Shown: positions 5,559 through 26,613 of the stretch, one piece after another
Position numbering within the stretch: position 1 is the stretch's first letter
Layout: each line of letters begins with the position of its first letter
Source of the DNA: a virus
Length of the DNA stretch: 42,572 nucleotides
Reading direction: 5' to 3' (one strand)
IMG/VR virus record: IMGVR_UViG_3300028597_000032
Location: 1 to 42,572 of that record
Program-made: the position numbers and the translations under genes
The notes under the pieces: generated by a model
What the model saw: only the letters and a program-made list of their open reading frames with translations
Told to the model about the DNA's origin: nothing
Databases searched by the model: none

Positions 5559-6214
5559 TGCGCCTCCTCGATCTCTACTGCGGGGCCGGCGGGGCCTCGG
5601 TCGGCTACCACCGCGCAGGGTTCGAGGTCATCGGGGTGGACATCCTGCCGCAGCCGCACTATCCGTTCGAGTTCGTCCAGGGCGATGCGCTCGATTTTCT
5701 CCAGAACCGCGCCGGCGCACTTGGTTTCGATGCGGTGCACGCGAGTCCGCCCTGTCAGGCCTACTCCTCGATGACGCGCGGCACGAACGCCGGGCAAGGG
5801 GATCACCCCACCCATGTCCGGATCGTCCGGCAGCGACTGATTCAGACCGGTCTGCCGTTCGTCATCGAGAATGTCATCGGCGCCCCGATGCGGAAGGATC
5901 TCCTCCTCTGCGGCACCATGTTCGGGCTGGACGTCCTCCGGCATCGGCTGTTCGAGCTGGGCGGCTGGCGGATCGGCAACCCCCCGATTCATCAGCGCCA
6001 CCGGGGCGGGGTCACCGACTGGCGCCATGGCAAGGCGAAGGTTGGTCCCTATTACGGGGTTTACGGCAGGCGGGCCGGCCGACGCGGGGTCATCGCCGAA
6101 TGGCAGGAGGCCATGGGTATCGACTGGATGGTCACCCGCCGAGAACTGACGCAGGCCATCCCGCCCGCCTACACCGATTGGATCGGACGCCGGCTGGCCC
6201 TGGTGGCGGCATGA
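5558..6214 (+). CDS. DNA (cytosine-5) methyltransferase, first of a tandem pair
   Basis: A 218-residue C5-cytosine methyltransferase. Visible motifs are the SAM-binding LDLYCGAGG (residues 4-12), the catalytic SPPCQ with Cys66, the ENV motif (FVIENV) and the late QAIPPAYT segment that corresponds to motif IX/X. It is short compared with bacterial Dcm-type enzymes (usually over 300 residues) and the target recognition region is compact, as in other phage enzymes. It likely methylates phage DNA to block host restriction. The start shares a base with the endolysin stop. It is paralogous to the next gene. Confidence 0.88.
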   Translation: MRLLDLYCGAGGASVGYHRAGFEVIGVDILPQPHYPFEFVQGDALDFLQNRAGALGFDAVHASPPCQAYSSMTRGTNAGQGDHPTHVRIVRQRLIQTGLPFVIENVIGAPMRKDLLLCGTMFGLDVLRHRLFELGGWRIGNPPIHQRHRGGVTDWRHGKAKVGPYYGVYGRRAGRRGVIAEWQEAMGIDWMVTRRELTQAIPPAYTDWIGRRLALVAA

Positions 6215-6861
6215 AGCCCCGTCTCCTCGACCTGTTCTGCGGGGCCGGCGGGGCGGCCATGGGTTACCATCGGGCCGGGTTCGAGGTCGTCGGGGTGGAC
6301 ATCGCGCGGCAGCCGCATTACCCGTTCGAGTTCCACCGCGCGGACGCCCTCGACTTCTTGTCCAGGACCGGCGGTTTCGATGCGGTGCACGCGAGTCCGC
6401 CTTGCCAGCACTGGTCGAGGGCGCAACAGCATGGCCTGACCTACGAGACCGGCCACCTTCTCTCGGCGACCCGCACGGCGCTGGTCGAGTTCGGCCGGCC
6501 ATGGGTGATCGAGAATGTGCCGGGTGCGTACATGCGTCCGGATTATCGCCTCTGCGGTTGCATGTTCGGATTGCCCGGCCTGCGCCGTGAACGATGGTTC
6601 GAGACAAGCTGGGTGGATTGGCAGCGTTTCAGAGCGAAGCATCGGCATGTGGGCCGAACGGTTACAGTTGCCGGGCATCCGGGGCGCCGATCCACCCGAG
6701 ACGGTTACGGAAACGGCACAACCGCCGAGTGGCGGGCCGCGATGGATATCGATTGGATGACCAATCGGGAGATGGCTCAGGCCATCCCTCCGGCCTTCAC
6801 ACAGATGATAGGCGGAAGACTCCTCGACCAGATACGATCCGCCGAGTCGGCAGCCGGCTAG
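6211..6861 (+). CDS. DNA (cytosine-5) methyltransferase, second of a tandem pair
   Basis: A 216-residue paralogue of the preceding enzyme. Motifs: LDLFCGAGG (residues 6-14), SPPCQ with Cys65, WVIENVPG and QAIPPAFT. Start ATG 6211 overlaps the previous stop by 4 bp; the frame is open far upstream but that part is a shadow of other genes. A 29-bp stretch around the catalytic Cys (5723-5751 and 6373-6401) is identical in the two genes, while the region between ENV and the C-terminus has diverged, as expected if the two recognise different targets. It is the last gene before the structured terminator region. Confidence 0.88.
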   Translation: MKPRLLDLFCGAGGAAMGYHRAGFEVVGVDIARQPHYPFEFHRADALDFLSRTGGFDAVHASPPCQHWSRAQQHGLTYETGHLLSATRTALVEFGRPWVIENVPGAYMRPDYRLCGCMFGLPGLRRERWFETSWVDWQRFRAKHRHVGRTVTVAGHPGRRSTRDGYGNGTTAEWRAAMDIDWMTNREMAQAIPPAFTQMIGGRLLDQIRSAESAAG

Positions 6862-6922
6862 GCATCCTGCGAGGTCCGTCCGGGATGGCTGCCGGCTGCC
6901 GACTCCTTCTGAGGGCTTAGAG

Positions 6923-6969
6923 GAGGCGCTCAGGTCGCCTCTACGGCACGATCCCGGCCTGGCCGGGGT
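6923..6969 (+). other. Hairpin-rich leader of the intergenic region
   Basis: Two small hairpins: GAGGCG/CGCCTC (6923-6928 and 6936-6941, 7-nt loop) and CCCGGCC/GGCCGGG (6953-6959 and 6962-6968, a near-palindrome). They lie downstream of the second methyltransferase and upstream of the three-way junction described separately. No gene was found here on the plus strand. I checked the 7-nt loop (CTCAGGT), which looks like an anticodon loop, but no T-arm or acceptor stem accompanies it. Confidence 0.4.
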
Positions 6970-6984
6970 GATCCCCTTGCCCGG

Positions 6985-7065
6985 CGGGACTGGCACCCGT
7001 ATCTGACGGGTGATCGGGGAAATAATCTGCAATAACCAGATTCCAGTCCCGCTCGAACGTCCCCG
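6985..7065 (+). ncRNA. Candidate structured RNA: three-way junction with possible pseudoknot
   Basis: An outer 10-bp perfect stem (GCGGGACTGG at 6985-6994 with CCAGTCCCGC at 7043-7052) directly encloses two hairpins with no unpaired bases at either join: CACCCG/CGGGTG (6995-7000 and 7008-7013, 7-nt loop) and AATCTG/CAGATT (7024-7029 and 7037-7042, 7-nt loop). The 10-nt segment between the hairpins includes CGGGGA (7016-7021), which can pair with TCCCCG at 7060-7065, forming a pseudoknot. The terminator follows 11 bases later. It could be a stable 3' UTR element, a small RNA or an unrecognised tRNA-like structure. The pairing is seen directly; transcription and function are inferred. Confidence 0.45.
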
Positions 7066-7075
7066 AATAATAGCA

Positions 7076-7113
7076 GCCCGCCCCCGGATCCCGACTCCGG
7101 GGGCGGGCCTTTT
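7076..7113 (+). terminator. Strong rho-independent terminator, probably bidirectional
   Basis: A perfect 13-bp GC-rich stem (7076-7088 with 7096-7108), 7-nt loop TCCCGAC, followed on the plus strand by CTTTT. It sits between two convergent transcription units: tail-lysis-methyltransferase genes from the left and the leftward small-gene operon from the right. On the minus strand the stem follows an A-run and is trailed by TGCTATTATT, so some termination there is possible too. Confidence 0.85.
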
Positions 7114-7118
7114 GCTAT

Positions 7119-7226
7119 TCAGTGGAGGGGCATATTCAGGGCGAGAATGACCACGGCACCCCAGACGATCAGGAATGCCGTGATGCCGAGTAGGGCGGAC
7201 CTATGCCTTCCGATTGAGAGCCTCAT
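7119..7226 (-). CDS. 35-residue single-membrane-span microprotein
   Basis: A minus-strand gene encoding 35 residues: basic N-terminus (MRLSIGRHRSA) followed by one hydrophobic span (LLGITAFLIVWGAVVILAL). The ATG at 7226 is preceded by GGGAGGT at ideal spacing, and the gene overlaps the 3' end of the next upstream gene by 26 bp in another frame. It is the last gene of the leftward operon, just before the terminator. Function unknown; a small membrane protein could be an exclusion or lysis-regulating factor, but nothing in the sequence decides this. Confidence 0.55.
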   Translation of the reverse strand: MRLSIGRHRSALLGITAFLIVWGAVVILALNMPLH

Positions 7227-7755
7227 TTAGTACCTCCCGCGCCATATCGATCTTGGCCATGGTTTGGCGGATATCGACGCAGACGGCGGCATGACCGGCG
7301 AGCGCCTCCTCCTCCGATTCATACCGGACGATGGCCTCCACGTAGGCCTCCAGTTCCGGATGGATATCCTCCTCCCCTGGGGTCCGGAACACCATGGTCT
7401 CGAATACAATCGGCGTCCACTCTCCTGCCGCCAATCGGTCGCCGAGTCCGGCGCCATAGCCCATGTCATGGCCGAGCCAAACCGTCGAGATCCACAGCGG
7501 CCCGATCGTCGCCTCATCCACCCGGCAATAGGACCGGAAGGAATGTAGGACCGCGAACTCATCCCACTCCAGCGGTTGATTCTGCCGGTCGTAGAACATC
7601 GGCCGGGTCATGGTGAATCGGAACGCGACCATCTCCAGTGGCGGCACCAGGAGCCGGAGGGGCTCACCCGTTCTCATCAGGAGTGGGCCGAACTTCCGGT
7701 GAATCCTTTCGTGCCGTCGCTTGTTGGCCGCGTTGATCCGCCTCGTCCGGCTCAT
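7201..7755 (-). CDS. Unknown phage protein, 184 residues
   Basis: A 184-residue protein with a basic N-terminus (MSRTRRINAANKRRHERIH), an aromatic central part and an acidic, helical C-terminal third (EEALAGHAAVCVDIR). No family is recognised with certainty. It belongs to the leftward operon and follows the small membrane protein gene (7756-8025) with no gap. The central segment (SFRSYCRVDEATIGPLWISTVWLG) resembles phage proteins of unknown function that contain a short beta-hairpin domain. Not assigned. Confidence 0.75.
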   Translation of the reverse strand: MSRTRRINAANKRRHERIHRKFGPLLMRTGEPLRLLVPPLEMVAFRFTMTRPMFYDRQNQPLEWDEFAVLHSFRSYCRVDEATIGPLWISTVWLGHDMGYGAGLGDRLAAGEWTPIVFETMVFRTPGEEDIHPELEAYVEAIVRYESEEEALAGHAAVCVDIRQTMAKIDMAREVLNEALNRKA

Positions 7756-8025
7756 TCAGTTCTCCGACGCCTGCCGCCGGACCGCCGCTCCGGCCAGATA
7801 CCAGCCATCATTGGCCCACATCCACACCTGGCCGGTCTCGGTATCGAGAACCTGCCACTTCTCCGGGCTTCGGGTGAAGAGGTGCGGCATCGGGATCGGC
7901 ACCGGCATGTTCGCGTTGATCTCCCTGATCGACCGAATGGTCCGCCGGGTGTGCAGGATCGACCACCAGGTCAAACCAATCACAATCCAGGTCGCGGCAA
8001 TCACGATAAACCATAGCCAATTCAT
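7756..8025 (-). CDS. Small membrane protein, one N-terminal span
   Basis: An 89-residue protein with one hydrophobic segment at residues 2-24 (MNWLWFIVIAATWIVIGLTW) followed by a basic stretch (HTRRTIRSIREI), predicting an N-terminal anchor with a cytoplasmic domain that contains WQVLDTETGQVWMWANDGW. ATG 8025 is chosen because GAGAGG lies 6 bp upstream and the codon forms an ATGA overlap with the stop of the preceding gene; an in-frame ATG at 8031 is an alternative. Function unknown. Confidence 0.7.
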   Translation of the reverse strand: MNWLWFIVIAATWIVIGLTWWSILHTRRTIRSIREINANMPVPIPMPHLFTRSPEKWQVLDTETGQVWMWANDGWYLAGAAVRRQASEN

Positions 8026-9031: not shown

Positions 9032-9380
9032 GTGCCCTCAACTCCTTCCGCTCCTGAACTCGCTGGATCCATTCGTCATCGATCGCCGTCACGTCGCCAT
9101 CCGCGTCCGCCTCGCCGGTGATGATCACATCGCCGACGATCGACTGGAGGGCGATCGTGCTGGCAAACCGGTTGAGGGGCAAGCCGTTCAGTGCCCCCTC
9201 CTCGTTGCACCAGAGGATGCCCATCAGTGGCAGCCGGACCGCCTCCAGGTATCCGCCGACCGCCGATTGTAGTTGTCGCAGTTGAGGTCCCGCCGTCCTG
9301 GACAGTTCCACCAGCTCCCAGTCGCGGTCCGGATCGGCCGGGATGAGGACGGCCGGCAGGCCTTCACGCGGTGCCGACAT
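9009..9380 (-). CDS. DUF3846-like protein
   Basis: A 123-residue protein with the features of the DUF3846 family: an LQSAVGGYLEAV helix, the WCNEEGALNGLPLNRFAS segment and VGDVIITGEADADGD. Such proteins occur in phages and mobile elements of Gram-positive bacteria; their function is not known. The ATG at 9380 overlaps the end of the preceding gene by 17 bp. Part of the leftward operon. Confidence 0.7.
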   Translation of the reverse strand: MSAPREGLPAVLIPADPDRDWELVELSRTAGPQLRQLQSAVGGYLEAVRLPLMGILWCNEEGALNGLPLNRFASTIALQSIVGDVIITGEADADGDVTAIDDEWIQRVQERKELRAHAGDSGR

Positions 9381-10089
9381 TGAGGTTCTCCATCACGGCC
9401 ATGATCGAGGCCAGCCGGATCACATCCCGATCGGTCCCGCTCAATCGGCCGAGCCCGTGGATCTGATATCCCTCGACGTAATCATAATTCGAGGAGACCA
9501 CCGCGCCGGTCCGATCATGCCATCGAGTCCTGATTGTCGTGCACCTCATGCACTTCAATTGGTACTCGTAAAGATTGAGTCGATTGACCCATTGTACTGA
9601 GAACGGCCGCCACGAATGTCCGAAGTCTCGGCACTGGAGATGTTCCACGTCCATCCCCTGAACCGCCTTCTCGACGGAAGGAGGTACCGGCGCCTCATGG
9701 ACTGGAACTCGTTTCTTCGGTTCATGATGCTTCACGGCGGTGACCGGCGCCGATGCTGCCGCACTCTTGCGCGCCATCCTCCCCTTCTCCGCTGCCTCCA
9801 CGGAGGCTAGGGCGCGCGCTGCCTGCCGATCCGCCGACTCCGGGATGATCCGCCGATCCCTAGCCGATGAGTCCGCCTGCGGCGACTTGAGCGCCTCTGC
9901 TGCCGGAGGGGCTGAGGTGGCCGCTGCCGGCCGGGATCCTCCTCCGGGGTCCTTCCGTGCCGGCCGGCCGGCTGGTCCGCCTCTGGCCGTCTGACCTGCG
10001 GTTCCGGTCCTCTTTCGAGGCGGGGTCGCTCTCTTCTGTCCCTCCGTTCTAGCCCGTTCCCTGCGTGCTTGCCGATCCTCTGCGGTCAT
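9364..10089 (-). CDS. Basic Ala/Arg-rich protein with C-terminal zinc-binding domain
   Basis: A 241-residue protein. The frame opens at a TTG (10146), but ATG 10089 has GGAAGGGG 4 bp upstream and is preferred. Residues 1-130 are low-complexity, rich in Arg, Ala and Pro, with no visible fold. Residues about 150-241 hold CRDFGHSWRPF...LKCMRCTTIRTRW, a CxxxxH...CxxC zinc ribbon, followed by a helical tail. The C-terminal part resembles a conserved actinophage zinc-ribbon domain. The basic N-terminal tail suggests nucleic-acid binding. Confidence 0.65.
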   Translation of the reverse strand: MTAEDRQARRERARTEGQKRATPPRKRTGTAGQTARGGPAGRPARKDPGGGSRPAAATSAPPAAEALKSPQADSSARDRRIIPESADRQAARALASVEAAEKGRMARKSAAASAPVTAVKHHEPKKRVPVHEAPVPPSVEKAVQGMDVEHLQCRDFGHSWRPFSVQWVNRLNLYEYQLKCMRCTTIRTRWHDRTGAVVSSNYDYVEGYQIHGLGRLSGTDRDVIRLASIMAVMENLNVGTA

Positions 10090-10310
10090 GAGTCCCCTTC
10101 CGACCCGTTCGGCTGATTCGCAGGTCATCCTAGGAGATGATGTCAATTCGTGGTCAAGACACTCCGGACAGCGAAGGAGGCGGACCCATGGCTGAGTCCG
10201 CCTCCTGCTGGTGAAGCTATTCAGTTTTGCGGATATTCATCGCTTATCCGCCGGAGATACCTACCCCTAGGGATGGAGGCCAATCGGAGGACGGCCATCC
10301 GGAGTGAGGG
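10090..10310. other. 221-bp gap in the leftward operon with an 11-bp inverted repeat
   Basis: No convincing gene. A perfect 11-bp stem (AGGAGGCGGAC at 10175-10185, GTCCGCCTCCT at 10196-10206, 10-nt loop) lies here. It has no T-run on either strand, so it may be an attenuator or an RNA-processing site rather than a strong terminator. A 25-codon minus-strand frame (10221-10298) is present but lacks a ribosome binding site. The gap separates the operon into two parts (10311-11437 and 7119-10089). Confidence 0.5.
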
Positions 10311-10394
10311 TCATCGGCGCCGACCGCCACATCCCGCATGGCCGCATCCTCCGCAGAACCCCCCGTGGTTGCATTCACACGGACACGGCCTCAT
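10311..10394 (-). CDS. Cys-rich 27-residue microprotein (possible)
   Basis: A minus-strand frame of 27 codons giving MRPCPCECNHGGFCGGCGHA and a short basic tail with one more Cys. Six Cys and two His could bind zinc. GAGGAGG lies 11 bp before the ATG at 10394, which overlaps the upstream gene by 20 bp. Similar tiny Cys-rich products occur in this operon. Size makes it uncertain. Confidence 0.35.
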   Translation of the reverse strand: MRPCPCECNHGGFCGGCGHAGCGGRRR

Positions 10395-10719
10395 CGGTTC
10401 CCGCCTCCTCCCGCGCGTAGAAGGTGAATCCGAGGGTGCCGAGGTCATAGAGGCCATCCGATCGTGCCGGCATCCGGTACTCCTCCTCATCCCCTGCGAA
10501 CTGCCACACGGCAACCTCCCCATCGAATCGAACGAGGGCGAGCGCCCCGTCCAGATTGGCATCGTCCTCCGATGCATTGGTTTCCTTCCAGTGATTCGCC
10601 ATGGCGGTCAGCGTGTCCTTGGTCACGACCGGGGTGACCCAGCCGTTCCAGCGCGGACCGAACTCCTCCGCCGGATAAACGGCGGAAGGATCCCAGTCCT
10701 CCGAGAAATAGAGGGTCAT
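10375..10719 (-). CDS. Unknown phage protein, 114 residues
   Basis: A 114-residue acidic protein. ATG 10719 forms an ATGA overlap with the upstream stop; an in-frame GTG at 10734 is less likely. Sequence features: an aromatic N-terminus (MTLYFSEDWDPSAVY), a beta-rich core (ALALVRFDGEVAVWQF) and LYDLGTLGFTFYA near the end. No family recognised. Leftward operon. Confidence 0.65.
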   Translation of the reverse strand: MTLYFSEDWDPSAVYPAEEFGPRWNGWVTPVVTKDTLTAMANHWKETNASEDDANLDGALALVRFDGEVAVWQFAGDEEEYRMPARSDGLYDLGTLGFTFYAREEAGTDEAVSV

Positions 10720-11150
10720 CGGCCGGTCTTCCACGGATTGGCGGCATTGAGTTCCGCCACGATGGCATCCACGTCGGCGTCCTGATTCACGAATCCGCTA
10801 TCGGAGGTATCGGCCAGTTCATCGAGGAATGCGCCATGGTCCATCGAGTAACCGATCTCCTGCGCGTAATCGGCAAGGACCCGCCAGAGTGTCCCGCCAT
10901 CCATTCGGCCGAGATCCCCGTCGAGGAGTCTTTCCGCCGATGTGATCAGTCCGGCCAGTGCCGGACGCATCACCCGATCCTCTTTGTAGAGAGGAACCAG
11001 CGCGTCGAGGGCGTCGAACAAATGGACGATCGGCGCCTCCTCCTTGGTCGGGAACTCGATCGCGGTCCGGTGCTGGCCCTGCCAGCCTCCGGCGGCATAG
11101 ATGCCGAAACCGATGGCCTCGGTCCGGAAAGGTTCGCGGAACTTGGTCAT
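10716..11150 (-). CDS. Unknown phage protein, 144 residues
   Basis: A 144-residue acidic protein. ATG 11150 is chosen because it forms an ATGA overlap with the upstream gene. The body is helical (HLFDALDALVPLYKED, LITSAERLLDGDLG) with an acidic C-terminal region (DADVDAIVAELN). No recognisable motif. Leftward operon, coupled to genes on both sides by 4-bp overlaps. Confidence 0.65.
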   Translation of the reverse strand: MTKFREPFRTEAIGFGIYAAGGWQGQHRTAIEFPTKEEAPIVHLFDALDALVPLYKEDRVMRPALAGLITSAERLLDGDLGRMDGGTLWRVLADYAQEIGYSMDHGAFLDELADTSDSGFVNQDADVDAIVAELNAANPWKTGR

Positions 11151-11422
11151 GCCTTCACAAACCCCTGTTCCGCCCACATCGCGTAGGCGCCGGTGAGGGT
11201 GCTGGAGGGATCCGCCTCATAGGAGATCGTCATCCGCTGGAGATCCCGATCGTTCGCCAGCACCTTCACCGGGGTGTGCTTCCGGCCGATGAGAAGGCGG
11301 TCGTTGGGGCGGGCCGCGCGGATCACCCGGAGGGATTCCTTCCGGACCTCCGCCCTCCTCTCGTCGTCCTCGGTCATCCAGTCCCTGCGGCCCACCGGCC
11401 GGTTCAGCCAGTCGCGTTCCAT
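11147..11422 (-). CDS. First gene of the leftward operon, unknown, 91 residues
   Basis: A 91-residue basic protein. ATG 11422 is chosen because GGAG lies 6 bp upstream; an in-frame ATG at 11437 is a plausible alternative that would add five residues. The frame stays open to 11566 but that part is attP-side DNA. The sequence has many Arg and Asp (RPVGRRDWMTEDDERRAEV) and a beta-rich middle (RLLIGRKHTPVKVLA). Function unknown. It lies downstream of a candidate promoter at 11475-11480. Confidence 0.6.
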   Translation of the reverse strand: MERDWLNRPVGRRDWMTEDDERRAEVRKESLRVIRAARPNDRLLIGRKHTPVKVLANDRDLQRMTISYEADPSSTLTGAYAMWAEQGFVKA

Positions 11423-11474
11423 GATCACTCCGATCATCGGGAGGCCCCCTGTCCGGCGCCTCGATTCCTCTCCG

Positions 11475-11498
11475 ATCCTAGGACCCGAACATGTTGGG
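11475..11498 (-). promoter_or_regulatory. Candidate leftward promoter with overlapping dyad operator
   Basis: On the minus strand TAGGAT (11475-11480) is a good actinobacterial -10 element, about 40-50 bases before the first leftward gene. The sequence just upstream on that strand, 11484-11498, is a 15-bp near-perfect dyad (CCCGAACATGTTGGG, mismatched only at one symmetric pair), placed between -10 and -35 where a repressor would block transcription. No convincing -35 box is seen. Confidence 0.35.
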
Positions 11499-11525
11499 AA
11501 CCTGTTGAGAAGTTGTCGCCTCCGA

Positions 11526-11886
11526 GTGCAATACCGGCGCCTATTGCACGGCCGGCCGGCGTGCAATAGAGGCCTTCCCTGGGCCGGCTGCCGGCGCAGA
11601 AGTTGATCATGGTCCTGATCTGCGGAGATGCCGCAACAAGATCAACTGAATCGTTCGATATTGCATCTATCTTGCACTGGCCGGTTGTTGATCTTGGTGA
11701 TATGGCCTCTGAACTGGGCAAACGTAGGGTGGGCGATACTGGGATCGAACCAGAGTCCCCTAGGCCTCCGGCATAGGCGCTGACCTGCGTAAACGCAGTT
11801 CAGACGGCACGACGGTGCAATATCGCCGGTGAACACATAGGATCTCATAGGACCTAGAGGGGGTCCGGATTGCACAGATGCAATAG
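11526..11886. repeat. attP arm region: repeated GTGCAATA integrase arm-type sites
   Basis: The octamer GTGCAATA or its complement occurs at 11526-11533 (+), 11542-11549 (-), 11561-11568 (+) and 11815-11822 (+); close variants are at 11659-11666 (TATTGCAT), 11671-11677 (CTTGCAC), 11869-11875 (ATTGCAC) and 11878-11885 (ATGCAATA). They flank the tRNA-like core on both sides, as arm-type sites flank the core of lambda- or L5-type attP. The pair at 11541-11549 and 11561-11569 forms a 9-bp inverted repeat. The last copies lie just before the integrase start and could allow self-regulation. Confidence 0.75.
11728..11760. other. attP: attP core matching the 3' end of a tRNA-Val gene
   Basis: Read on the minus strand this is the T-arm and acceptor end of a tRNA: CTGGTTCGATCCCAG then TATCGCCCACC. 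TTCGATC is the T-loop, and TATCGCCCACC is the acceptor end typical of actinobacterial tRNA-Val. There is no complete tRNA here, so this is the phage half of a tRNA attachment site: integration would rebuild the host gene. The integrase starts about 150 bp away. Exact core limits need the host attB. Intact attP next to intact int means the DNA is in the excised form. Confidence 0.75.
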
Positions 11887-11908
11887 AGTTGATCAAGGAG
11901 AGATGATC

Positions 11909-13075
11909 ATGGCAGGCACGAGGCAGCGGCGCCGATCGTTCGGCCGGATGAGGCGGACATCGGCCGGCCGGTTCCAGGTCGGCTACGTCGGTCCGGATGG
12001 GCGCCTCTGGAACGCTCCGGAGACGTTCGCCAACGAGGCGGATGCCAACCGCTGGCTGGAGATCAAGGAGGCGGAGATCCGGGACGGCCGCTGGGTCTCC
12101 CCGGCGGAGGAGAGGGTCGACAAGGAGGCCTACTTCCGGGATTGGGTGGCCGGCTGGCTGGAGACGAAGGTGAAGTCCGGAGAGTTCCGCCCGCGCACCG
12201 CAGAGGAATACTCCAAGTATCTCGACCGATTCATCCTGCCAAAGTTCGGCGACAAAAAGGTGAAGGCCATCACCGCCTCGATGGTGCGGGAATGGTATTA
12301 CGAGGACTTGAATCCGGATACCCCATCGATGCGTTCCCATGTTTATGAGGCCTTCCGCCACATGATGAACGGCGCCGTTGCCGAGGATATGCGCGACGAC
12401 AATGCCTGCAAAATTATCCAGCGGAAAACTCGCGCGCACAAGCCAGTCGTACTCAGCATTGTTGAACTCATCGAACTGGCGGAGGCAATCAATCCGCGTT
12501 ACAAACTGATGATCCTGATCGCCGGTTCCTCGACGTTGCGGTTCGGCGAAGTGACTGCGCTGCGTCGGTCGGACATTGTGTTTACCGAGGACGGCCGCTG
12601 CCTCATCCGCGTGGATAAGGGAGTTTCCCGGACGAAGGAGGGCTTCCATGTCGGCGACCCGAAGACGGAGGCGGGTCGGCGGACCCCCCGTCTCCCGGCC
12701 ATGTTTGTCGGCGACGTTCGGCGGCACCTTCTCGAATATGCGGCGCCCGGCAAGGATGGCCTTCTCTTCCCGGCCAAGGGCGATCCTGACAATCACCTGG
12801 CGACCTCGACCTTTGCCAAGGTGTTCACGGTGGCGAAGAAACGAACGGGACATGACCGCCTGACCTTTCACGATCTGCGGCATACGGCGGCAGTGATGGC
12901 CGCGCAGACGGGCGCCTCGTTGGCGGACCTCATGGAACGAATGGGTCATTCCTCCCCTAAGGCGGCGATGATCTATCAGCACGCCGCGCAGGGATCCGAC
13001 GATCGGATTGCCGAACGCATGAATGAAATGTGGGAGGCGCAGTTGGCTAAACAACCGAAGAGAACTTATCGCTAG
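11909..13075 (+). CDS. int: Tyrosine integrase
   Basis: A 388-residue phage integrase. The N-terminal approximately 60 residues (Arg-rich, beta) fit an arm-binding domain; residues about 75-165 form the core-binding SAM-like domain (RPRTAEEYSKYLDRFILP); the catalytic domain follows with Arg211 (STLRFGEVTALR), a Lys in DPKTEAGRRTPRL, His321-x-x-Arg324 (FHDLRH), a GHSS His and Tyr356 (MIYQHA). ATG 11909 has AAGGAG 8 bp upstream; ATG 11903 is too close to it. The gene lies beside attP and converges on the repressor gene, overlapping its 3' end by 29 bp. Confidence 0.92.
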   Translation: MAGTRQRRRSFGRMRRTSAGRFQVGYVGPDGRLWNAPETFANEADANRWLEIKEAEIRDGRWVSPAEERVDKEAYFRDWVAGWLETKVKSGEFRPRTAEEYSKYLDRFILPKFGDKKVKAITASMVREWYYEDLNPDTPSMRSHVYEAFRHMMNGAVAEDMRDDNACKIIQRKTRAHKPVVLSIVELIELAEAINPRYKLMILIAGSSTLRFGEVTALRRSDIVFTEDGRCLIRVDKGVSRTKEGFHVGDPKTEAGRRTPRLPAMFVGDVRRHLLEYAAPGKDGLLFPAKGDPDNHLATSTFAKVFTVAKKRTGHDRLTFHDLRHTAAVMAAQTGASLADLMERMGHSSPKAAMIYQHAAQGSDDRIAERMNEMWEAQLAKQPKRTYR

Positions 13076-13838
13076 ACGGATCATCACCGGCGCCCGCCTC
13101 CTCGACCTGAGGGGCGGGCGTTTCCTTTGTAATTTTGAAGTTCACGCGCAAAACATCATGCCAAAACTTCCGGCGATACTCCTCCGGAATCTCTATCGGT
13201 TGAAGCTCGAACGCCTGATCTTTTACTTCTGAGATTATCCAGCGCGTGGCATGGCCTCGCATGGCGCGGAACGAGGGATTATCTCCGGGGATGACAAACC
13301 AGCGGCGACCCTCTTCCGGCTGAACTTGTCGATAACAATCTATCCATGAGACGGGTTTCGGCAGCTGCATATGCCACATCACCAACTCGTCGCGCAGATA
13401 AAGAACGAACTTTCGACTGAACCTTTTCTCGAAATAGAAATGGAACTCCTCCGGATCCATGCCCGCCTTGCGGGACAGCCGCGCCACCTCATAGGGATCG
13501 TCCTCCTTCGGGACCTCCCCGGCGCCCTCCATCGGAACGCCACGTAGAGCGGCCTGAGCGGCACTGAGCGGGACTTCCCGGCCATCCGGCAGCAGGAGAC
13601 CCCCCGGCGGCCCCTCCTCGCCGAGAAGCTCCGCTAGGGAGACCTCGAACGCCGCGCAGAGCGCCATCAGTTCGGCCAGCCGATCGGCGCGTTGGACTCC
13701 CGCCTCGATCTGCGCCACGGTGCCGGGGCTCCAGGTGAGGCCTTGCCTCCGGACCTCGGTCGCCAGCCGCGACTGGGACCAGCCGCGTTCCTGCCGGAGG
13801 AGATGGAGGCGTAATGCCACGTGTTCCTGCGTATTCAT
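13047..13838 (-). CDS. Immunity repressor (Xre-type helix-turn-helix)
   Basis: A 263-residue protein. Residues about 8-75 are an Xre/cI-type helix-turn-helix (LRLHLLRQERGWSQSRLATE, then TVAQIEAG and a helix ending ELLGEE). The remainder is unlike LexA/cI peptidase domains: no Ser-Lys dyad is obvious; the C-terminal half is aromatic and basic (FEKRFSRKFVLYLRDELVMW, EEYRRKFWHDVLRVNF). Position beside int and divergent from the Cro/Xis-like gene fits a lysogeny repressor. There is no Shine-Dalgarno site before ATG 13838, and TACGCT lies 7 bp upstream, suggesting a leaderless mRNA. Confidence 0.8.
   Translation of the reverse strand: MNTQEHVALRLHLLRQERGWSQSRLATEVRRQGLTWSPGTVAQIEAGVQRADRLAELMALCAAFEVSLAELLGEEGPPGGLLLPDGREVPLSAAQAALRGVPMEGAGEVPKEDDPYEVARLSRKAGMDPEEFHFYFEKRFSRKFVLYLRDELVMWHMQLPKPVSWIDCYRQVQPEEGRRWFVIPGDNPSFRAMRGHATRWIISEVKDQAFELQPIEIPEEYRRKFWHDVLRVNFKITKETPAPQVEEAGAGDDPSSDKFSSVV
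13091..13128 (+). terminator. Integrase terminator embedded in the repressor gene
   Basis: Fifteen bases after the int stop, CGCCCGCC (13091-13098) pairs with GGCGGGCG (13113-13120), and inside it CCTC (13100-13103) pairs with GAGG (13109-13112), leaving one bulged T and a 5-nt loop. TTTCCTTT follows. This is a good rho-independent terminator on the plus strand. The same DNA encodes the C-terminus of the repressor on the minus strand. Confidence 0.7.
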
Positions 13839-21059: not shown

Positions 21060-21163
21060 ACGTGATCCACCTCTGCCCTCGGTTCCGATGCTGCCGGGTC
21101 TGCGGCAAGCACGCCGAGCCCTGCACCTGCGAGGAGATGAACCATGACGAACACGGAGAGTGA
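21056..21163 (+). CDS. 35-residue Cys-rich microprotein
   Basis: GTG 21056 forms a GTGA overlap with the resolvase stop, and GGAG is 6 bp upstream. The product (MNVIHLCPRFRCCRVCGKHA, then EPCTCEE...) has six Cys and several His: probably zinc-binding. It overlaps the ParB-like gene by 20 bp. Present in the same operon as other tiny Cys proteins. Confidence 0.5.
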   Translation: MNVIHLCPRFRCCRVCGKHAEPCTCEEMNHDEHGE

Positions 21164-21734
21164 CCTTGCCCTGCACTGGGTCCCGCTGGCGGAGTTGACC
21201 CCGCACCCGATGAACCCACGTCGGGGCAATGTCGCGATGTTGGTGGAGTCGTTGCAGGAGAACAAGCAGTACGCGCCGATCGTGGTCAACAAGGGGACCA
21301 GAACCGGTCGGCCGAACGAGATCCTGGCCGGCCATCACCTGGTGCTGGCGGCTGCCGAACTCGGCTGGTCGGCCGTCAAGGCGGTCTACGTCGATGAGGA
21401 CGAGGAGGGCGCCAAGAGGATCCTGTTGGCGGACAATCGCTCGTCCGACCTGGCCGGATACGACGATCGGCTGCTCGCCGAACTCCTGTCCAGCCTCGAC
21501 CGCCTCGACGGCACCGGATTCAACGAGGAGGATCTCGCGTCCCTGATCAAGGTTCTCGACCTGCCGGAGATCGAGGTTCCGGACAACGATCAGGACGTCC
21601 TCGATTCCAGCGATGAGGCGATGTGGCCGGAGATCCGGGGCCGGGTCGCACCCAGCCTCTACGCGACGTTCCTCCTGCTACCGGGTGAGGATGATGCCGG
21701 GAAGCTGGCTCATTTGCTCGGAGAGGGACGATGA
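21144..21734 (+). CDS. ParB/Sulfiredoxin-domain protein linked to the DNA-modification cluster
   Basis: A 196-residue protein whose N-terminal half is a ParB/Srx domain: WVPLAELTPHPMNPRRGNV, SLQENKQYAPIVVNKG, EILAGHHLVLAAAELGW, then AKRILLADNRSSDLAGYDD. The C-terminal part is helical and acidic. ParB-type proteins in phages may bind or nick DNA; genes of this type often lie next to phage dpdA. It overlaps dpdA by 4 bp, so it may take part in placing the modified base or protecting DNA. Function in that process is inferred from position. Confidence 0.75.
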   Translation: MTNTESDLALHWVPLAELTPHPMNPRRGNVAMLVESLQENKQYAPIVVNKGTRTGRPNEILAGHHLVLAAAELGWSAVKAVYVDEDEEGAKRILLADNRSSDLAGYDDRLLAELLSSLDRLDGTGFNEEDLASLIKVLDLPEIEVPDNDQDVLDSSDEAMWPEIRGRVAPSLYATFLLLPGEDDAGKLAHLLGEGR

Positions 21735-22678
21735 GCTTCAACCTGCTGTTGTCCTATGCCCTGGTCGGTGGCGTCGATCTGAGACGAATCAGGGCGTCCA
21801 TGCCTTGCGGTCGGCTGATGATCGACTCCGGGGCCTTCTCGGTGCACAAGTCCAACCAGGGCAAGCTGACCCAGCCGGTGGTCGTCTCGCTGGACGATTA
21901 CGCCTCCTACCTGGAGGAATGGGCCGGATGTTGGGATTACGCGATTACCCTTGACGTGATCGGCGACCCGGCGGCGTCCCGCCGGAACACCCGGAAGTTG
22001 CACGAACGAGGATTGCCCGTTCTGCCCGTTTTCACCCGGGGCGACAAGATTACCGACCTCCGGGCGATGCTGGCCGAGACCCGGTATGTCTGCGCCGGTG
22101 GCCTGGTCGGGATGGCCGAGAAGTATCGCATACCGCGTCTCCAGGTGATCCAGCGACACGCCGCCGAGTTCGGTGGTGGAGTGCACGCTCTCGGCATCGG
22201 CAGTCTGCCGGCGTTACGCGCCACTCGTCCCTATTCGGCCGATACGTCCCGTTTCCTGATGGGTTACGGCTATCACACGGTGCAGGTGTTCGACGGCCGG
22301 GATCTCCACCCGGTCGACATCCTCGATCACAAACGGATGCTGAAATACCGGAACCTTCTGGTGAGCCATGGGTTCGGGGTGACCGCGCACCTGACCGACC
22401 GCCGGATGCCGGAAGGCAACAAGCCCGGCCTGCCCCGATGGCTGAACTCGCAAGCTCTCGGCGTGGCCGCTGCCTGCGCCGACGAATACCTGAAAACCAC
22501 CTACCCGGTCCCGATGGGCGACGACCCGGGAATGCACTTCTACGCGGTCGCCATCCGCACCGACGCCTATGCCATCGCCTCCACCGATGCCCTCATCCAC
22601 TCCGACACCCCGCCGCCCGTCTGGGAACGCTATCGGCGGCACCATGTTTGCACCCCGCGCAAGGAGAACGCCGCATGA
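21731..22678 (+). CDS. dpdA: DpdA-like DNA-guanine transglycosylase
   Basis: A 315-residue protein of the phage DpdA group, related to tRNA-guanine transglycosylase. Visible features: LMIDSGAFSVHKSNQGK near residue 35 (nucleophile/substrate Asp region), ITLDVIGDP at about 75, RYVCAGGLVGMAEKY, and HALGIGSLPALRATRPYSAD followed by TSRFLMGYG, matching the late GIxS...YSxD(S/T)S motif of DpdA. The family swaps guanine in DNA for a 7-deazaguanine such as preQ0. ATGA overlaps link it to the ParB-like gene and to queC. Confidence 0.85.
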   Translation: MSFNLLLSYALVGGVDLRRIRASMPCGRLMIDSGAFSVHKSNQGKLTQPVVVSLDDYASYLEEWAGCWDYAITLDVIGDPAASRRNTRKLHERGLPVLPVFTRGDKITDLRAMLAETRYVCAGGLVGMAEKYRIPRLQVIQRHAAEFGGGVHALGIGSLPALRATRPYSADTSRFLMGYGYHTVQVFDGRDLHPVDILDHKRMLKYRNLLVSHGFGVTAHLTDRRMPEGNKPGLPRWLNSQALGVAAACADEYLKTTYPVPMGDDPGMHFYAVAIRTDAYAIASTDALIHSDTPPPVWERYRRHHVCTPRKENAA

Positions 22679-23337
22679 CCGGATCATTGGTCCTCCTCTC
22701 CGGAGGCATGGACTCCACCGTCGCCCTCGCTCGCGAGGCCCTCGACCATCGCGCCAAGTTCGCACTATCCGTCGATTATGGGCAGCGTCACCGCAAGGAA
22801 TTGTCGGCCGCCGTCCGGATCGCCGCAGAATATCCGGAGATCGAGCATGAGGTCCTGGACCTGACCGGATGGGGACGCCTGCTAACGGGTTCCGCGCTTA
22901 CCGACCCGAGAGTGCCTGTCCCGCACGGCCATTACGCCGCGCCGGCCATGGCTATCACCATCGTGCCGAATCGGAATGCCGTCCTCCTCATGGCCGCTGC
23001 CGGGGTGGCCATCGCGGTCGGCTGCGATGAGGTGGTGATCGCGGTGCACGCCGGGGACCATCCGGTCTATCCTGATTGCCGCCCGGAGTTCATCGACCAG
23101 ATCAACCGCGCGACAGCCCTCGCCACCGATCAGGCGGTGACCATCCGGGCACCTTTCCTCAATTACACCAAGACCGACATCGCCCTCCAGTCGGCGATAT
23201 ACGCGGCCCCGGTTCACCTCTCCTGGTCCTGCTATGAGGGTGGGGAACGGCATTGTGGCCGGTGCGGGACCTGTCAGGAACGGATTGAGGCATTCCTCGA
23301 TGCCGGCATCCATGATCCGACATTGTACGCATTATGA
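22675..23337 (+). CDS. queC: 7-cyano-7-deazaguanine (preQ0) synthase QueC
   Basis: A 220-residue N-type ATP pyrophosphatase. The PP-loop SGGMDST is at residues 9-15, VDYGQRHRKE follows, and HAGDHPVYPDCRPEFID is typical of QueC. The C-terminal zinc site is complete: SCYEGGERHCGRCGTC. It converts carboxy-deazaguanine to preQ0 using ATP and ammonia. ATG 22675 lies in an ATGA overlap; the open frame further upstream is a shadow of dpdA. No glutamine-amidotransferase domain is fused, so it is not the Gat-QueC form. Confidence 0.92.
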   Translation: MTGSLVLLSGGMDSTVALAREALDHRAKFALSVDYGQRHRKELSAAVRIAAEYPEIEHEVLDLTGWGRLLTGSALTDPRVPVPHGHYAAPAMAITIVPNRNAVLLMAAAGVAIAVGCDEVVIAVHAGDHPVYPDCRPEFIDQINRATALATDQAVTIRAPFLNYTKTDIALQSAIYAAPVHLSWSCYEGGERHCGRCGTCQERIEAFLDAGIHDPTLYAL

Positions 23338-23768
23338 TCGTCCTGATATCGTGCGGGTCGAAGAAACGTACGTATCCGAGTGCGGCCATCAGTCTGTATG
23401 AGGGGTCGTATTTCCGGGCAACGAGAAAGTGGGCGTCCTCCGTGACGGATCCGGAGTACATCTACATTCTCTCTGCTAAATATGGGATCATCCGCTCGGA
23501 TAGGGTGATCCCGCCATACGAGGTCACAATCGGTTCGCGGGACGCTATCTCGCCGATGGATGTGGCCACTCAGATAGCCGCCCTGAACTGGCGGGGCCGG
23601 CTGATCACGCTGGCCGGAGTCGCCTACCTGCGGTTCCTCGACAAGGCGACCGATCGGGTGCTGCCGGTGAATCCCTTCGTCCGGCTCTGCCGGGAAGACG
23701 GGCATCCGGCCTCGCTCGGCTACCAGATACAGATGATGAAACGTTGGCATGGAAGGGTTCCGGCATGA
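23334..23768 (+). CDS. DUF6884-like protein in the deazaguanine cluster
   Basis: A 144-residue protein. The N-terminus (MIVLISCGSKKRTYPSAA) with a conserved SC-G-KK, then LYEGSYFRATRKWAS, YILSAKYGIIRSDRVIPPYE and a WRGRLITLAG beta strand, fits DUF6884. This family is repeatedly found near phage dpdA and queC genes, but its function is unknown. Coupled by ATGA overlaps between queC and queD. The S-C and K-Y-G motifs could be catalytic. Possible roles: nucleoside or base handling for DpdA. Confidence 0.7.
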   Translation: MIVLISCGSKKRTYPSAAISLYEGSYFRATRKWASSVTDPEYIYILSAKYGIIRSDRVIPPYEVTIGSRDAISPMDVATQIAALNWRGRLITLAGVAYLRFLDKATDRVLPVNPFVRLCREDGHPASLGYQIQMMKRWHGRVPA

Positions 23769-24151
23769 TCGCCGTCATCACCAAGGACTTTACGTTCTCG
23801 GCCAGTCACCGGCTGGAACTCCTGCCGGAAGGCCATCAGTGCGCAAGGTACCACGGCCACAACTACATTGCGCGGGTCGAGATCGAGGGTTCCGTTGATC
23901 GAACGGGTTTCGTCCTGGACTACGGCGACCTGGCCGAGTTCGGCCACTACATTGACGTCAACCTCGATCATCGGCACCTGAACGACGTTCTGCCGGACAA
24001 TCCGACCGCCGAGAACCTCGCTCGGCACCTGATCGGCGTTCTCCGCATGGTGATTAAGAACGTTTACGGGATGCCGAGTCATCCGCTATCCATCGGCGTC
24101 CATATCTCCGAGACCCCGAAAACCTGGGCCATCTACCGCGAAAAGTGGTGA
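23765..24151 (+). CDS. queD: 6-carboxy-5,6,7,8-tetrahydropterin synthase QueD
   Basis: A 128-residue protein of the 6-pyruvoyl-tetrahydropterin-synthase family. Zinc His15 (FSASHRL) and His30/His32 (YHGHNY) are present, with catalytic Cys26 (HQCARYHGH), the FVLDYGDL segment, LDHRHLND and PTAENLARHL, and a late Glu in SETPKTWAIY. It converts dihydroneopterin triphosphate to carboxytetrahydropterin. ATG 23765 is in an ATGA overlap with the preceding gene. Confidence 0.92.
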   Translation: MIAVITKDFTFSASHRLELLPEGHQCARYHGHNYIARVEIEGSVDRTGFVLDYGDLAEFGHYIDVNLDHRHLNDVLPDNPTAENLARHLIGVLRMVIKNVYGMPSHPLSIGVHISETPKTWAIYREKW

Positions 24152-24152
24152 A

Positions 24153-24851
24153 ATGATGAAGTTCCCGGTGGTCGAGACCTTCGGTCCGACCCTGCAAGGA
24201 GAAGGCCCCTACGCCGGCCAACAGGCGGCGTTCCTGCGGCTCGGCGGCTGCAACCTCTCCTGCTCCTGGTGCGATACCCCGTATTCGTGGGACGGCGAAC
24301 GATTCAACCTGCGGAAGGAGATGACCAACCTCACGGTGCCGGAGATCATGGACCGGATGCCGATGGCGAACTCCTGCGTGATCACCGGAGGAGAACCGTT
24401 GCTCCACCAGCACAATCCCTACTGGCGCAACCTCCTGTATGAACTCTGGTGCCGATACGGGGATCTGCACCTGGAGACGAACGGGACCATCGAACCGATC
24501 GAGGCCACTACCAATTTTTGCCAGTTCATCTCAGTGAGCCCGAAACTGCCGAACGCCGGAATGCATCGGCACAATCATGACGGTAATGCCGATATCTGGA
24601 CCGGCTGGTTGGACGTGCCGGCAGCCATCCTGAAATTCGTCTGCGAGGACGAGGCAGACGTGGAGATCGCTCTCCTCCGGTCCATCGGACTCGGATTCCA
24701 TCACCGCCGGGTCTGGGTGATGCCGCAGGGCGCCACCCGGGATGAACTCGACAAGCGATGGCCGATCATCGCCGACGCCGCCGCCCGGCGTGGTATCAAC
24801 GCAACCCATCGATTGCATATTCTGGCGTGGGATTCGGAAAGAGGTCACTGA
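24153..24851 (+). CDS. queE: 7-carboxy-7-deazaguanine synthase QueE (radical SAM)
   Basis: A 232-residue radical-SAM enzyme. ETFGPTLQGEGPYAGQQAAF is the QueE N-terminal motif; the cluster-binding CxxxCxxC is at Cys33, Cys37 and Cys40 (CNLSCSWCD); TGGEPLLH is the SAM-binding GGE motif; SVSPKL follows. It contracts carboxytetrahydropterin to carboxy-deazaguanine. Starts one base after the queD stop; ATG 24153 or 24156. Confidence 0.92.
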   Translation: MMKFPVVETFGPTLQGEGPYAGQQAAFLRLGGCNLSCSWCDTPYSWDGERFNLRKEMTNLTVPEIMDRMPMANSCVITGGEPLLHQHNPYWRNLLYELWCRYGDLHLETNGTIEPIEATTNFCQFISVSPKLPNAGMHRHNHDGNADIWTGWLDVPAAILKFVCEDEADVEIALLRSIGLGFHHRRVWVMPQGATRDELDKRWPIIADAAARRGINATHRLHILAWDSERGH

Positions 24852-25414
24852 TGTCCGAATGGACCGATGGACAGCTGGTATGGGAGGGCATCCATGCTCT
24901 CCTCCGCCTGGCCGGTGAGGATCCCGATCGGCCCGGTCTGGCACGCACTCCCGCGCGGTTCCTCGCTGCCTGGCAGGAGTTGACCAGTAAACCCGGTGAT
25001 CCGGCCGAGCTTCTCGCGACGACGTTCGATGATATCGGCCCGGTCGATGAGATGATCGCAGTTGGCCCGATGGAATTCGTCAGTATGTGCGAACATCACC
25101 TGATGCCGTTTTCCGGTACCGCATGGGTCGCCTACATTCCGCAGGACCGCATCGTGGGTCTGTCGAAACTCCCTCGCCTGGTGGAGCATTACGCCCGCCG
25201 GCTCCAGGTTCAGGAACGCCTCACCACGCAGATCACCGCCGCCCTCGACAAGTATGTTGGCCCGCTCGGATCGGCCGCTCTGCTGCGCGCTCAACACTCT
25301 TGCGCTGCCTTCCGGGGAGTGCGGAAGAATGCCCCCATGGTCACGTCATCCCTGACCGGTGCCTTCCGGCAGCCTGAGGTCCGTCAGGAGTTCCTCGCGC
25401 TGGCCCGGCCATGA
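24851..25414 (+). CDS. folE: GTP cyclohydrolase I FolE
   Basis: A 187-residue enzyme giving dihydroneopterin triphosphate, the first step of the deazaguanine route. Residues: zinc Cys80 and His83 (SMCEHHLMPFSG), GLSKLPRLVEHYARRLQVQE, and the later zinc Cys in AQHSCAAFRGVRK. ATG 24851 overlaps the queE stop by one base (TGATG) with AAAGAGG upstream. Having its own folE makes the phage independent of host folate flux. Overlaps the next gene by 4 bp. Confidence 0.92.
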   Translation: MSEWTDGQLVWEGIHALLRLAGEDPDRPGLARTPARFLAAWQELTSKPGDPAELLATTFDDIGPVDEMIAVGPMEFVSMCEHHLMPFSGTAWVAYIPQDRIVGLSKLPRLVEHYARRLQVQERLTTQITAALDKYVGPLGSAALLRAQHSCAAFRGVRKNAPMVTSSLTGAFRQPEVRQEFLALARP

Positions 25415-25968
25415 GGGAACAACTGATCCGGCTCGGTGGGATCTGGGACGATCTCAGCGGTGAAGTCGCCGGTGGCGCCTCGCCCGGTCCCCGCGCCCGG
25501 GGATCACGTCCGCCGATCAAGGTCTCAGTGGTGAGCCTGGTCATGGAGATCACGGTGGCCGCGCGGGAAGGTGCGGAGGATCTCGCCCACCGCTGGACGC
25601 CCGATTCCATCCACAATCTGTGGCTGATCCACGGCGCCCTCCTCGCCCGCCCCGATGATGACCTGATCACCTGGTGGTCGGATGCCGTGGAGGAGTGGGC
25701 CAATCGAGGAGACGCAATCCTCCAGCCCCACCTTCTCGAACGATTGTACGGAGCTAAATGCCCGACCTGCGGCAATGTCTCGGCGAACGCCTACCAGGAT
25801 GGTGAATGGGTGAAGGTGCCGGCCATCGAGGTCGGATGGGATGAGGATTCAATCAGGGTCATCGTCTGTCGACAATGCGGCTGCCGATGGGATCGGGAGG
25901 ACAACCTCTCCGAGCTGATCAATGTCATGATTGCGAACAACCGGCACGAGGTATTGCACATAACCTGA
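25411..25968 (+). CDS. Conserved actinophage zinc-ribbon protein, 185 residues
   Basis: A 185-residue protein in ATGA overlap with folE. The N-terminal two thirds are helical (VVSLVMEITVAAREGAEDLA, LWLIHGALLARPDDDLITWW); the C-terminal third has CPTCG...CRQCGCRW, a CxxC...CxxC zinc ribbon. Proteins of this design occur in many actinophages near terminase genes. Role unknown; perhaps a DNA-binding or assembly factor. Last gene of the modification operon. Confidence 0.65.
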   Translation: MREQLIRLGGIWDDLSGEVAGGASPGPRARGSRPPIKVSVVSLVMEITVAAREGAEDLAHRWTPDSIHNLWLIHGALLARPDDDLITWWSDAVEEWANRGDAILQPHLLERLYGAKCPTCGNVSANAYQDGEWVKVPAIEVGWDEDSIRVIVCRQCGCRWDREDNLSELINVMIANNRHEVLHIT

Positions 25969-26190: not shown

Positions 26191-26223
26191 GGTTACCTCC
26201 TCTCTTGATTGGCCCTGTACCCG

Positions 26224-26613
26224 ATGCCGACGAGAGCCACGCGCGTTTGCCCCCGATGTCTGACTCCCCTGTCCGGTCGACGCTGCCTGGTCTGCGCCGA
26301 TCGGAGGCGCCACGTCTACGACCTGCGCACTGCCGGCCGGCCGGATCCCTACGATGACCCACGATGGGTGGCACTGAGCAGGGCATTCCGTCGAGCCCAT
26401 CCGTATTGTGAATCCGATCGGTGCGCCCGAAAGCCCGAGTTCAGACGACCTTTCAGTGCCGTGGTCGATCACATCGATGGCCTCGGTCCCGCCGGGCCGC
26501 GTGGCCTCGATGAAACGAATTTAAAAGCCCTCTGTCGGCCCTGTCACAATGCGAAGACGAATCGGCACGATGGTGGTTTTGGTAATCCTTTGAATCGTCT
26601 GACTCCTCCCTAA
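26224..26613 (+). CDS. HNH endonuclease
   Basis: A 129-residue nuclease (start ATG 26224; an in-frame TTG at 26209 is an alternative). Zinc Cys pairs (VCPRCLTPL, RRCLVCADR, CESDRC) surround the HNH core: VVDHIDGLG (the His-Asp), then DETNLKALCRPCHNAKT (the Asn and His). HNH enzymes next to the small terminase are typical of HK97-type phages and assist cutting of concatemers at cos. Confidence 0.85.
   Translation: MPTRATRVCPRCLTPLSGRRCLVCADRRRHVYDLRTAGRPDPYDDPRWVALSRAFRRAHPYCESDRCARKPEFRRPFSAVVDHIDGLGPAGPRGLDETNLKALCRPCHNAKTNRHDGGFGNPLNRLTPP

What the first reader, a model, noticed from the sequence alone, without database searches (positions are those of the whole stretch)
21144..25414. Complete preQ0 DNA hypermodification cluster in a temperate actinophage
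FolE, QueD, QueE and QueC are all present with intact catalytic and zinc residues, joined to a DpdA-type transglycosylase and a ParB-like gene, all overlapping by 1-4 bp or separated by 1 bp. Family knowledge gives GTP to preQ0 and then replacement of guanine in DNA. No amidotransferase-fused QueC, QueF-like or ArcS-like gene is seen, so the predicted base is dPreQ0 rather than archaeosine-like dG+. Known dpd phages are mostly lytic or poorly placed; a lysogen would have to prevent modification of its host chromosome or tolerate it, a question this genome raises.
Basis: partly seen in the sequence, partly recalled or inferred. Interest (0 to 1): 0.88.

Follow-up and report, generated by a model that had tools for sequence, protein, structure and literature searches.

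The report
Phage operon replacing guanine with deazaguanine
A phage that can lie dormant in actinobacteria carries a complete set of genes to swap some of its DNA guanines for a modified base, a known anti-restriction disguise, plus an overlooked small gene that travels with this machinery in many unrelated viruses and probably alters the base further.

Summary
The operon is real: ParB-like, DpdA, QueC, QueD, QueE and FolE lie head to tail at 21144-25414, with catalytic residues intact. DpdA has the transglycosylase fold, and D32, D75, H152 and D171 are invariant across 60 relatives. The phage is temperate (tyrosine integrase 11870-13075, repressor) and the genome is essentially complete. The same ParB-DpdA-QueC-QueD-QueE-FolE module is already known in mycobacterial, Gordonia, Rhodococcus and Arthrobacter phages, so the core is a new member of a known kind. 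Temperate examples also exist already: Sonali and Bipper carry integrases.

Its core is a distant relative of bacterial DpdC (dPreQ0 to dADG) and has the YaaA fold, with a weaker resemblance to ArcS. DUF6884 sits directly beside DpdA/Que genes in 37 of 80 sampled viral loci, in 19 gene orders, and in the cultured viruses phiFN37 and HRTV-29. So "dPreQ0 as final base" is not safe: a nitrile-modified base, most likely dADG, is about as likely. Against it: five phages with measured dADG lack DUF6884, and Rosebush-species phages carry a distant copy while Rosebush DNA is dPreQ0. Mass spectrometry decides.

The parts
21144..21734 (+). ParB-like nuclease/partition domain protein, 196 aa, first gene of the operon
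   Evidence: phrog_723 E 6.6e-46; ParB_N weak; same place in Sonali, CRB2, Sour, Finch
21731..22678 (+). DpdA, DNA-guanine transglycosylase, 315 aa
   Evidence: phrog_887 E 1.2e-26; D32, D75, H152, D171 invariant in 60 relatives; AF2 model pLDDT 90, TGT fold Z 15.3 over 246 residues
22675..23337 (+). QueC, preQ0 synthase, 220 aa, no glutamine amidotransferase domain
   Evidence: PF06508 E 1.2e-55; TIGR00364 above cut-off
23334..23768 (+).
   Evidence: PF21818 E 1.5e-20; PADLOC DpdC E 3.2e-7; AF2 pLDDT 94, YaaA 5caj Z 8.3, AF0587 2q07 Z 7.0; linkage
23765..24151 (+). QueD, 6-carboxytetrahydropterin synthase, 128 aa
   Evidence: PF01242 E 1.6e-27; TIGR03367 E 2.4e-24
24153..24851 (+). [quoted passage not shown]
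   Evidence: phrog_2076 E 4.4e-61
24851..25414 (+). FolE, GTP cyclohydrolase I, 187 aa
   Evidence: PF01227 E 1.7e-55; NF006825 above cut-off
11870..13075 (+). tyrosine integrase (temperate lifestyle)
   Evidence: phrog_1 E 4.2e-56; PF00589 E 1.6e-21; R, HxxR and Y read in the sequence
13047..13838 (-). HTH transcriptional repressor
   Evidence: phrog_5823 E 4.4e-11, phrog_8 and others

Best explanation
A seven-gene DNA base-replacement operon of a temperate actinophage. FolE, QueD, QueE and QueC turn GTP into preQ0; DpdA then exchanges guanines of the phage DNA, after replication, for preQ0 (inferred from family knowledge and conserved residues). DUF6884, a relative of the catalytic core of bacterial DpdC, most likely acts on the nitrile of the inserted dPreQ0 and hydrates it to dADG, probably through its conserved Cys7-x3-Lys11 motif (inferred). 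The ParB-like protein probably loads or guides DpdA on DNA (inferred). The product protects phage DNA from restriction during lytic growth, and the operon is silent in the lysogen because it lies on the + strand with the replication and terminase genes (inferred). The chain up to a 7-deazaguanine in the DNA is about 0.9 likely; the last step (nitrile modification, dADG) about 0.5.
For: Genes and residues. TGT fold of DpdA. Same core module in phages of several actinobacterial genera; Rosebush, with this module, has 28% of G as dPreQ0, and a CAjan dpdA knock-out loses the base (PMC6884629). DUF6884: DpdC profile match to the window protein E 3.2e-7, and to those of several other viruses; hhalign of 50 DUF6884 with a bacterial DpdC next to DpdB, E 1.1e-4, probability 56%. 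Fold of YaaA (the DUF328 family to which DpdC is assigned, PMC12839542) and, lower, of AF0587, which nt-1 ArcS matches by sequence E 3e-8; DpdC and ArcS both act on inserted preQ0 (PMC12839542, PMC11298593). Linkage: 48 of 80 DUF6884 loci hold DpdA/Que genes, 37 within 200 bp on the same strand, 19 gene orders; all 10 of 80 DpdA loci with DUF6884 carry it near DpdA; phiFN37 ParB-DpdA-DUF6884-preQ0 transporter; HRTV-29 DUF6884-DpdA. DUF6884 never with Gat-QueC, QueF or ArcS in 29 clusters versus 6 of 50 without DUF6884 (one-sided p 0.057: a trend; QueF and ArcS were searched in only 21 of the 50).
Against: DUF6884 is absent from phages in which dADG was measured (7-11, HVTV-1, nt-1, CP220, MED16; measurements PMC6884629, PMC8306585). 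Phages of the Rosebush species carry a DUF6884 gene, yet Rosebush DNA has dPreQ0 and only 0.003% dADG; that gene lies on the opposite strand and in a separate long clade, so it is not a clean test. The standalone protein (144 aa) lacks the second half of DpdC (312 positions); profile similarity covers about 55 residues. hhalign with nt-1 ArcS is not significant. YaaA itself is a DNA-binding protein with no known nitrile chemistry. Many dpd clusters lack DUF6884, and DUF6884 occurs without dpd genes annotated nearby.
Confidence: 0.5

Rival explanations
1. The final base is dPreQ0; DUF6884 is a DNA-binding or base-flipping accessory that helps DpdA reach or choose its sites and does no chemistry on the base.
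For: YaaA fold and a positively charged DNA-binding cleft described for DUF6884, with YfjM binding damaged DNA (PMC11701544); the gene also pairs with DpdA where no preQ0 genes are present; Rosebush gives dPreQ0 with a distant DUF6884 in its species; DUF6884 is absent from measured dADG phages.
Against: Conserved Cys7 and Lys11 in a putative active site; homology to the DpdC core rather than to DNA-binding proteins in general.
Confidence: 0.36
2. DUF6884 converts dPreQ0 to another nitrile adduct, such as the amidine dG+ or an amino-acid conjugate as ArcS makes, rather than the amide dADG.
For: Structural match to AF0587, an ArcS-type protein by its sequence match to nt-1 ArcS; ArcS transfers lysine to preQ0 (PMC11298593, title and abstract).
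Against: No sequence-profile support for ArcS, Z only 7.0; the sequence relative with a described reaction is DpdC.
Confidence: 0.07
3. The preQ0 made by the phage feeds host tRNA queuosine or archaeosine rather than DNA.
For: QueC-E and FolE are the tRNA-queuosine precursor enzymes too (family knowledge).
Against: The transglycosylase belongs to the phage DpdA family with its conserved His (H152) and aligns with phage relatives; no QueF.
Confidence: 0.04

Closest known systems
preQ0/DpdA module of Mycobacterium phage Rosebush species (Arbiter, JN618996) and CRB2
   Same: ParB or regulator - DpdA - QueC - QueD - QueE - FolE in this order, next to terminase; Rosebush DNA carries dPreQ0 in 28% of G (PMC6884629)
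   Different: No DUF6884 inside the operon (Arbiter has a distant one on the other strand beyond terminase; CRB2 far away); no integrase match in these records
Arthrobacter phage Sonali (MK411746)
   Same: ParB - DpdA - QueC - QueD - QueE - FolE, tyrosine integrase, closest QueC (62%)
   Different: No DUF6884 in the record; DpdA only 25% identical
Bacterial dpd island (dpdA-dpdB-dpdC, S. Montevideo type)
   Same: DpdA inserts preQ0; DpdC is related to DUF6884
   Different: Phage has no DndB-type DpdB, no restriction genes dpdD-K recognised, and only the N-terminal core of DpdC
Fusobacterium phage phiFN37 and Halorubrum virus HRTV-29
   Same: DpdA directly beside a DUF6884 gene
   Different: No preQ0 synthesis genes beside it; phiFN37 has a preQ0-type transporter; HRTV-29 DpdA is not matched by the profile built here, so of another subfamily

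Membership tests
Phage DpdA (DNA-guanine transglycosylase) | TGT fold | tested here: met
   AF2 model Z 15.3 to 7nq4, 15.2 to 2ash
Phage DpdA (DNA-guanine transglycosylase) | conserved catalytic Asp residues and the DpdA His | tested here: met
   D32 (DSGAF), D75, H152, D171 invariant in 60 sequences; that H152 corresponds to H196 of the literature and D32/D171 to TGT D102/D280 is inferred from motif order
Phage DpdA (DNA-guanine transglycosylase) | puts 7-deazaguanine into DNA | not testable with these tools
   needs LC-MS of virion DNA
preQ0 pathway (FolE-QueD-QueE-QueC) | all four enzymes with active-site residues | tested here: met
dG+ type phage (Gat-QueC, QueF-L or ArcS) | an amidotransferase or QueF-L/ArcS gene | tested here: not met
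   QueC 220 aa; PF17884 no match; the only PF14489 match lies in FolE below cut-off
DpdC | sequence match to DpdC profile | tested here: inconclusive
   E 3.2e-7 but over 55 of 312 positions; hhalign E 1.1e-4, probability 56%
DpdC | full-length protein of about 310 aa | tested here: not met
   window protein has 144 aa
DpdC | converts dPreQ0 to dADG | not testable with these tools
   biochemical
DUF6884 (PF21818) | profile above cut-off, CxxxK and LSAxxG motifs | tested here: met
   74.1 bits against 30; C7-x3-K11 and LSAKYG
DpdB (DndB-like) | PF14072 domain | tested here: not met
   ParB_N/PHROG ParB only; a bacterial DpdB hits PF14072
Temperate phage | integrase and repressor | tested here: met

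The most novel reading that the evidence does not exclude
Standalone DUF6884 is an unrecognised, widespread partner enzyme of viral DpdA, in phages of unrelated bacteria and in a haloarchaeal virus, that processes the nitrile of dPreQ0 in DNA. It would define a hidden class of viral DNA hypermodification (phage-type DpdC) in phages now assumed to carry dPreQ0.
Probability: 0.42. Interest if true: 0.75.

Novelty: new variant of a known kind. Interest (0 to 1): 0.52.

Why it matters
The core operon adds one more temperate actinophage to a known modification class. The new point is the seventh gene: it recurs beside DpdA in many shuffled clusters, including cultured viruses, yet the authors who annotated it in HRTV-29 listed it as a peroxide-stress protein and did not connect it with DpdA in the passages read (PMC8651126). 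If it modifies the base, predictions of dPreQ0 made from Que gene content alone are wrong for this subset of phages, and restriction or sequencing readouts would differ. Cultured candidates make this directly testable.

Tried and rejected
1) Bipper gp4 and Megan gp06, 141-aa genes in the same slot, as DUF6884: rejected. 2) Association of DUF6884 with measured dADG: tested and not found. 3) Sequence homology of DUF6884 to ArcS by hhalign with one ArcS: not significant; only the fold match remains. 4) Exclusion between DUF6884 and Gat-QueC: the first count (9 of 50 against 0 of 29) was inflated by open overlapping frames; keeping true Gat starts (MCSI, plus Megan) and adding one QueF gives 6 of 50, one-sided p 0.057, so only a trend. 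5) genome-contig scan with the actinophage DpdA profile: one hit only, a Pseudonocardiaceae MAG with ParB-DpdA-QueC-DUF6884-QueD-QueE-FolE (DUF6884 split over two frames). 6) Cui et al. 2023 (gkad657), Gedara 2023, Yuan 2018 and Iyer 2013 are not held, so whether any of them already names phage DUF6884 could not be checked. 7) Rosebush itself is not in the collection; Arbiter of the same species was used. 8) Sampling bias: the DUF6884 loci came from an alignment partly made of dpd-linked seeds, so 48 of 80 is not a population rate; the DpdA-side rate is 10 of 80.

Full report
What is there. The window is an IMG/VR virus record of 42,572 bases. Bases 1-126 repeat 42439-42564 exactly and the tape-measure frame that runs off the right end resumes at the left end, so the genome is circularly permuted and essentially complete at about 42.4 kb. 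It is a siphophage: terminase, MuF-type portal, capsid, connectors, tail, endolysin; the nearest portals are Arthrobacter phages at 46-47% identity. A tyrosine integrase at 11870-13075 with its R, HxxR and Y residues, and a divergent HTH repressor, make it temperate.

The operon. At 21144-25414 seven genes, not six, lie head to tail: ParB-like, DpdA, QueC, DUF6884, QueD, QueE, FolE, overlapping by 4, 4, 4, 4 bp, then a 1-bp gap, then 1 bp. All pathway enzymes match their families strongly and keep their catalytic motifs. DpdA is a confident model (pLDDT 90) with the fold of tRNA-guanine transglycosylase (Z 15.3 over 246 residues), and D32, D75, H152 and D171 are invariant in 60 viral relatives. 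No Gat domain, ArcS or QueF is present.

What is known. The same module in the same order is annotated in Mycobacterium CRB2 and Arbiter, Gordonia Sour, Rhodococcus Finch and Arthrobacter Sonali; Microbacterium Megan and Mycobacterium Bipper carry variants of it. Hutinet et al. 2019 (PMC6884629) grouped 40 such phages, predicted preQ0 or ADG, and measured dPreQ0 in 28% of G for Rosebush and 32% for CAjan. Integrases accompany the module in Sonali and Bipper and in several metagenomic records, so temperate examples are not new.

The overlooked gene. DUF6884 at 23334-23768 matches PF21818 (E 1.5e-20), weakly YaaA, and PADLOC's DpdC models (E 3.2e-7). Its model (pLDDT 94) resembles E. coli YaaA (Z 8.3, 136 of 144 residues) and AF0587 (Z 7.0); Z values of this size are modest. 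AF0587 is matched by the ArcS of Vibrio phage nt-1 with E 3e-8. DpdC is assigned to the YaaA/DUF328 family and hydrolyses dPreQ0 to dADG (PMC12839542); a 2025 preprint gives DUF6884 as the domain of dpdC (PMC11888242). Fifty DUF6884 proteins aligned to one bacterial DpdC give hhalign E 1.1e-4, probability 56%.

Linkage. Of 80 DUF6884 loci fetched from viral contigs, 48 contain DpdA or Que genes and 37 have one within 200 bp on the same strand, in 19 gene orders. The seeds were partly dpd-linked, so this is not a population rate. From the other side, 10 of 80 DpdA loci hold DUF6884, all near DpdA. Cultured viruses show it too: phiFN37 ParB-DpdA-DUF6884-queuosine-precursor transporter, and the haloarchaeal virus HRTV-29, DUF6884 overlapping a DpdA of another subfamily. 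The authors of HRTV-29 listed the first as peroxide stress protein and discussed DpdA separately. On a tree of 66 proteins the dpd-linked label needs 7 changes against 21.9 in shuffles, and the Rosebush-type copy lies in a separate long clade.

How it most likely works. FolE, QueD, QueE and QueC make preQ0; DpdA exchanges it for guanine in DNA; DUF6884 then most likely hydrates the nitrile to the amide (dADG), with Cys7 and Lys11 as candidate catalytic residues. The first two steps rest on family knowledge and intact residues; the third is inference at about even odds. The chief objection is that phages with measured dADG have no DUF6884, so dADG can arise otherwise, and that Rosebush has dPreQ0 although its species carries a distant DUF6884. 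The rival, DUF6884 as a DNA-binding helper of DpdA, fits the YaaA fold and the pairing with DpdA where no preQ0 genes are present.

Verdict. The core is a new member of a known kind; with the DUF6884 partner the cluster is a new variant. Whether the DUF6884 link was published in papers not held here could not be checked.

Noticed in passing
window 1-126 and 42439-42564: Exact 126-bp terminal redundancy with the last 8 bases of the record diverging; the tape-measure gene is cut by the record ends, so the record is a circularly permuted, near-complete genome.
   Followed up: yes
window 5558-6214 (+): DNA methyltransferase (phrog_363, E 3.3e-40), a second DNA modification gene in the same phage.
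   Followed up: no
window 26209-26613 and 25411-25968 (+): HNH endonuclease (phrog_144) and a 185-aa protein of phrog_1467/DUF7341 that overlaps folE by 4 bp and extends the operon towards the terminase genes.
   Followed up: no
L055 (IMGVR_UViG_3300020048_003296) 6740-7855: The frame of a phage QueE carries an N-terminal HNH-like stretch (zinc-finger and HNH motifs by eye), in a cluster where DUF6884 overlaps DpdA.
   Followed up: no
L103 and L106: Two DUF6884 genes in tandem within one preQ0 cluster.
   Followed up: no
L022, L023, L032, L068, L070, L096, L108: Two DpdA-like genes in tandem or near each other in one cluster.
   Followed up: no
L190 (WHTH01000031.1, Pseudonocardiaceae MAG) 9369-13809: Same seven-gene order as the window, but DUF6884 is split over two frames.
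   Followed up: partly
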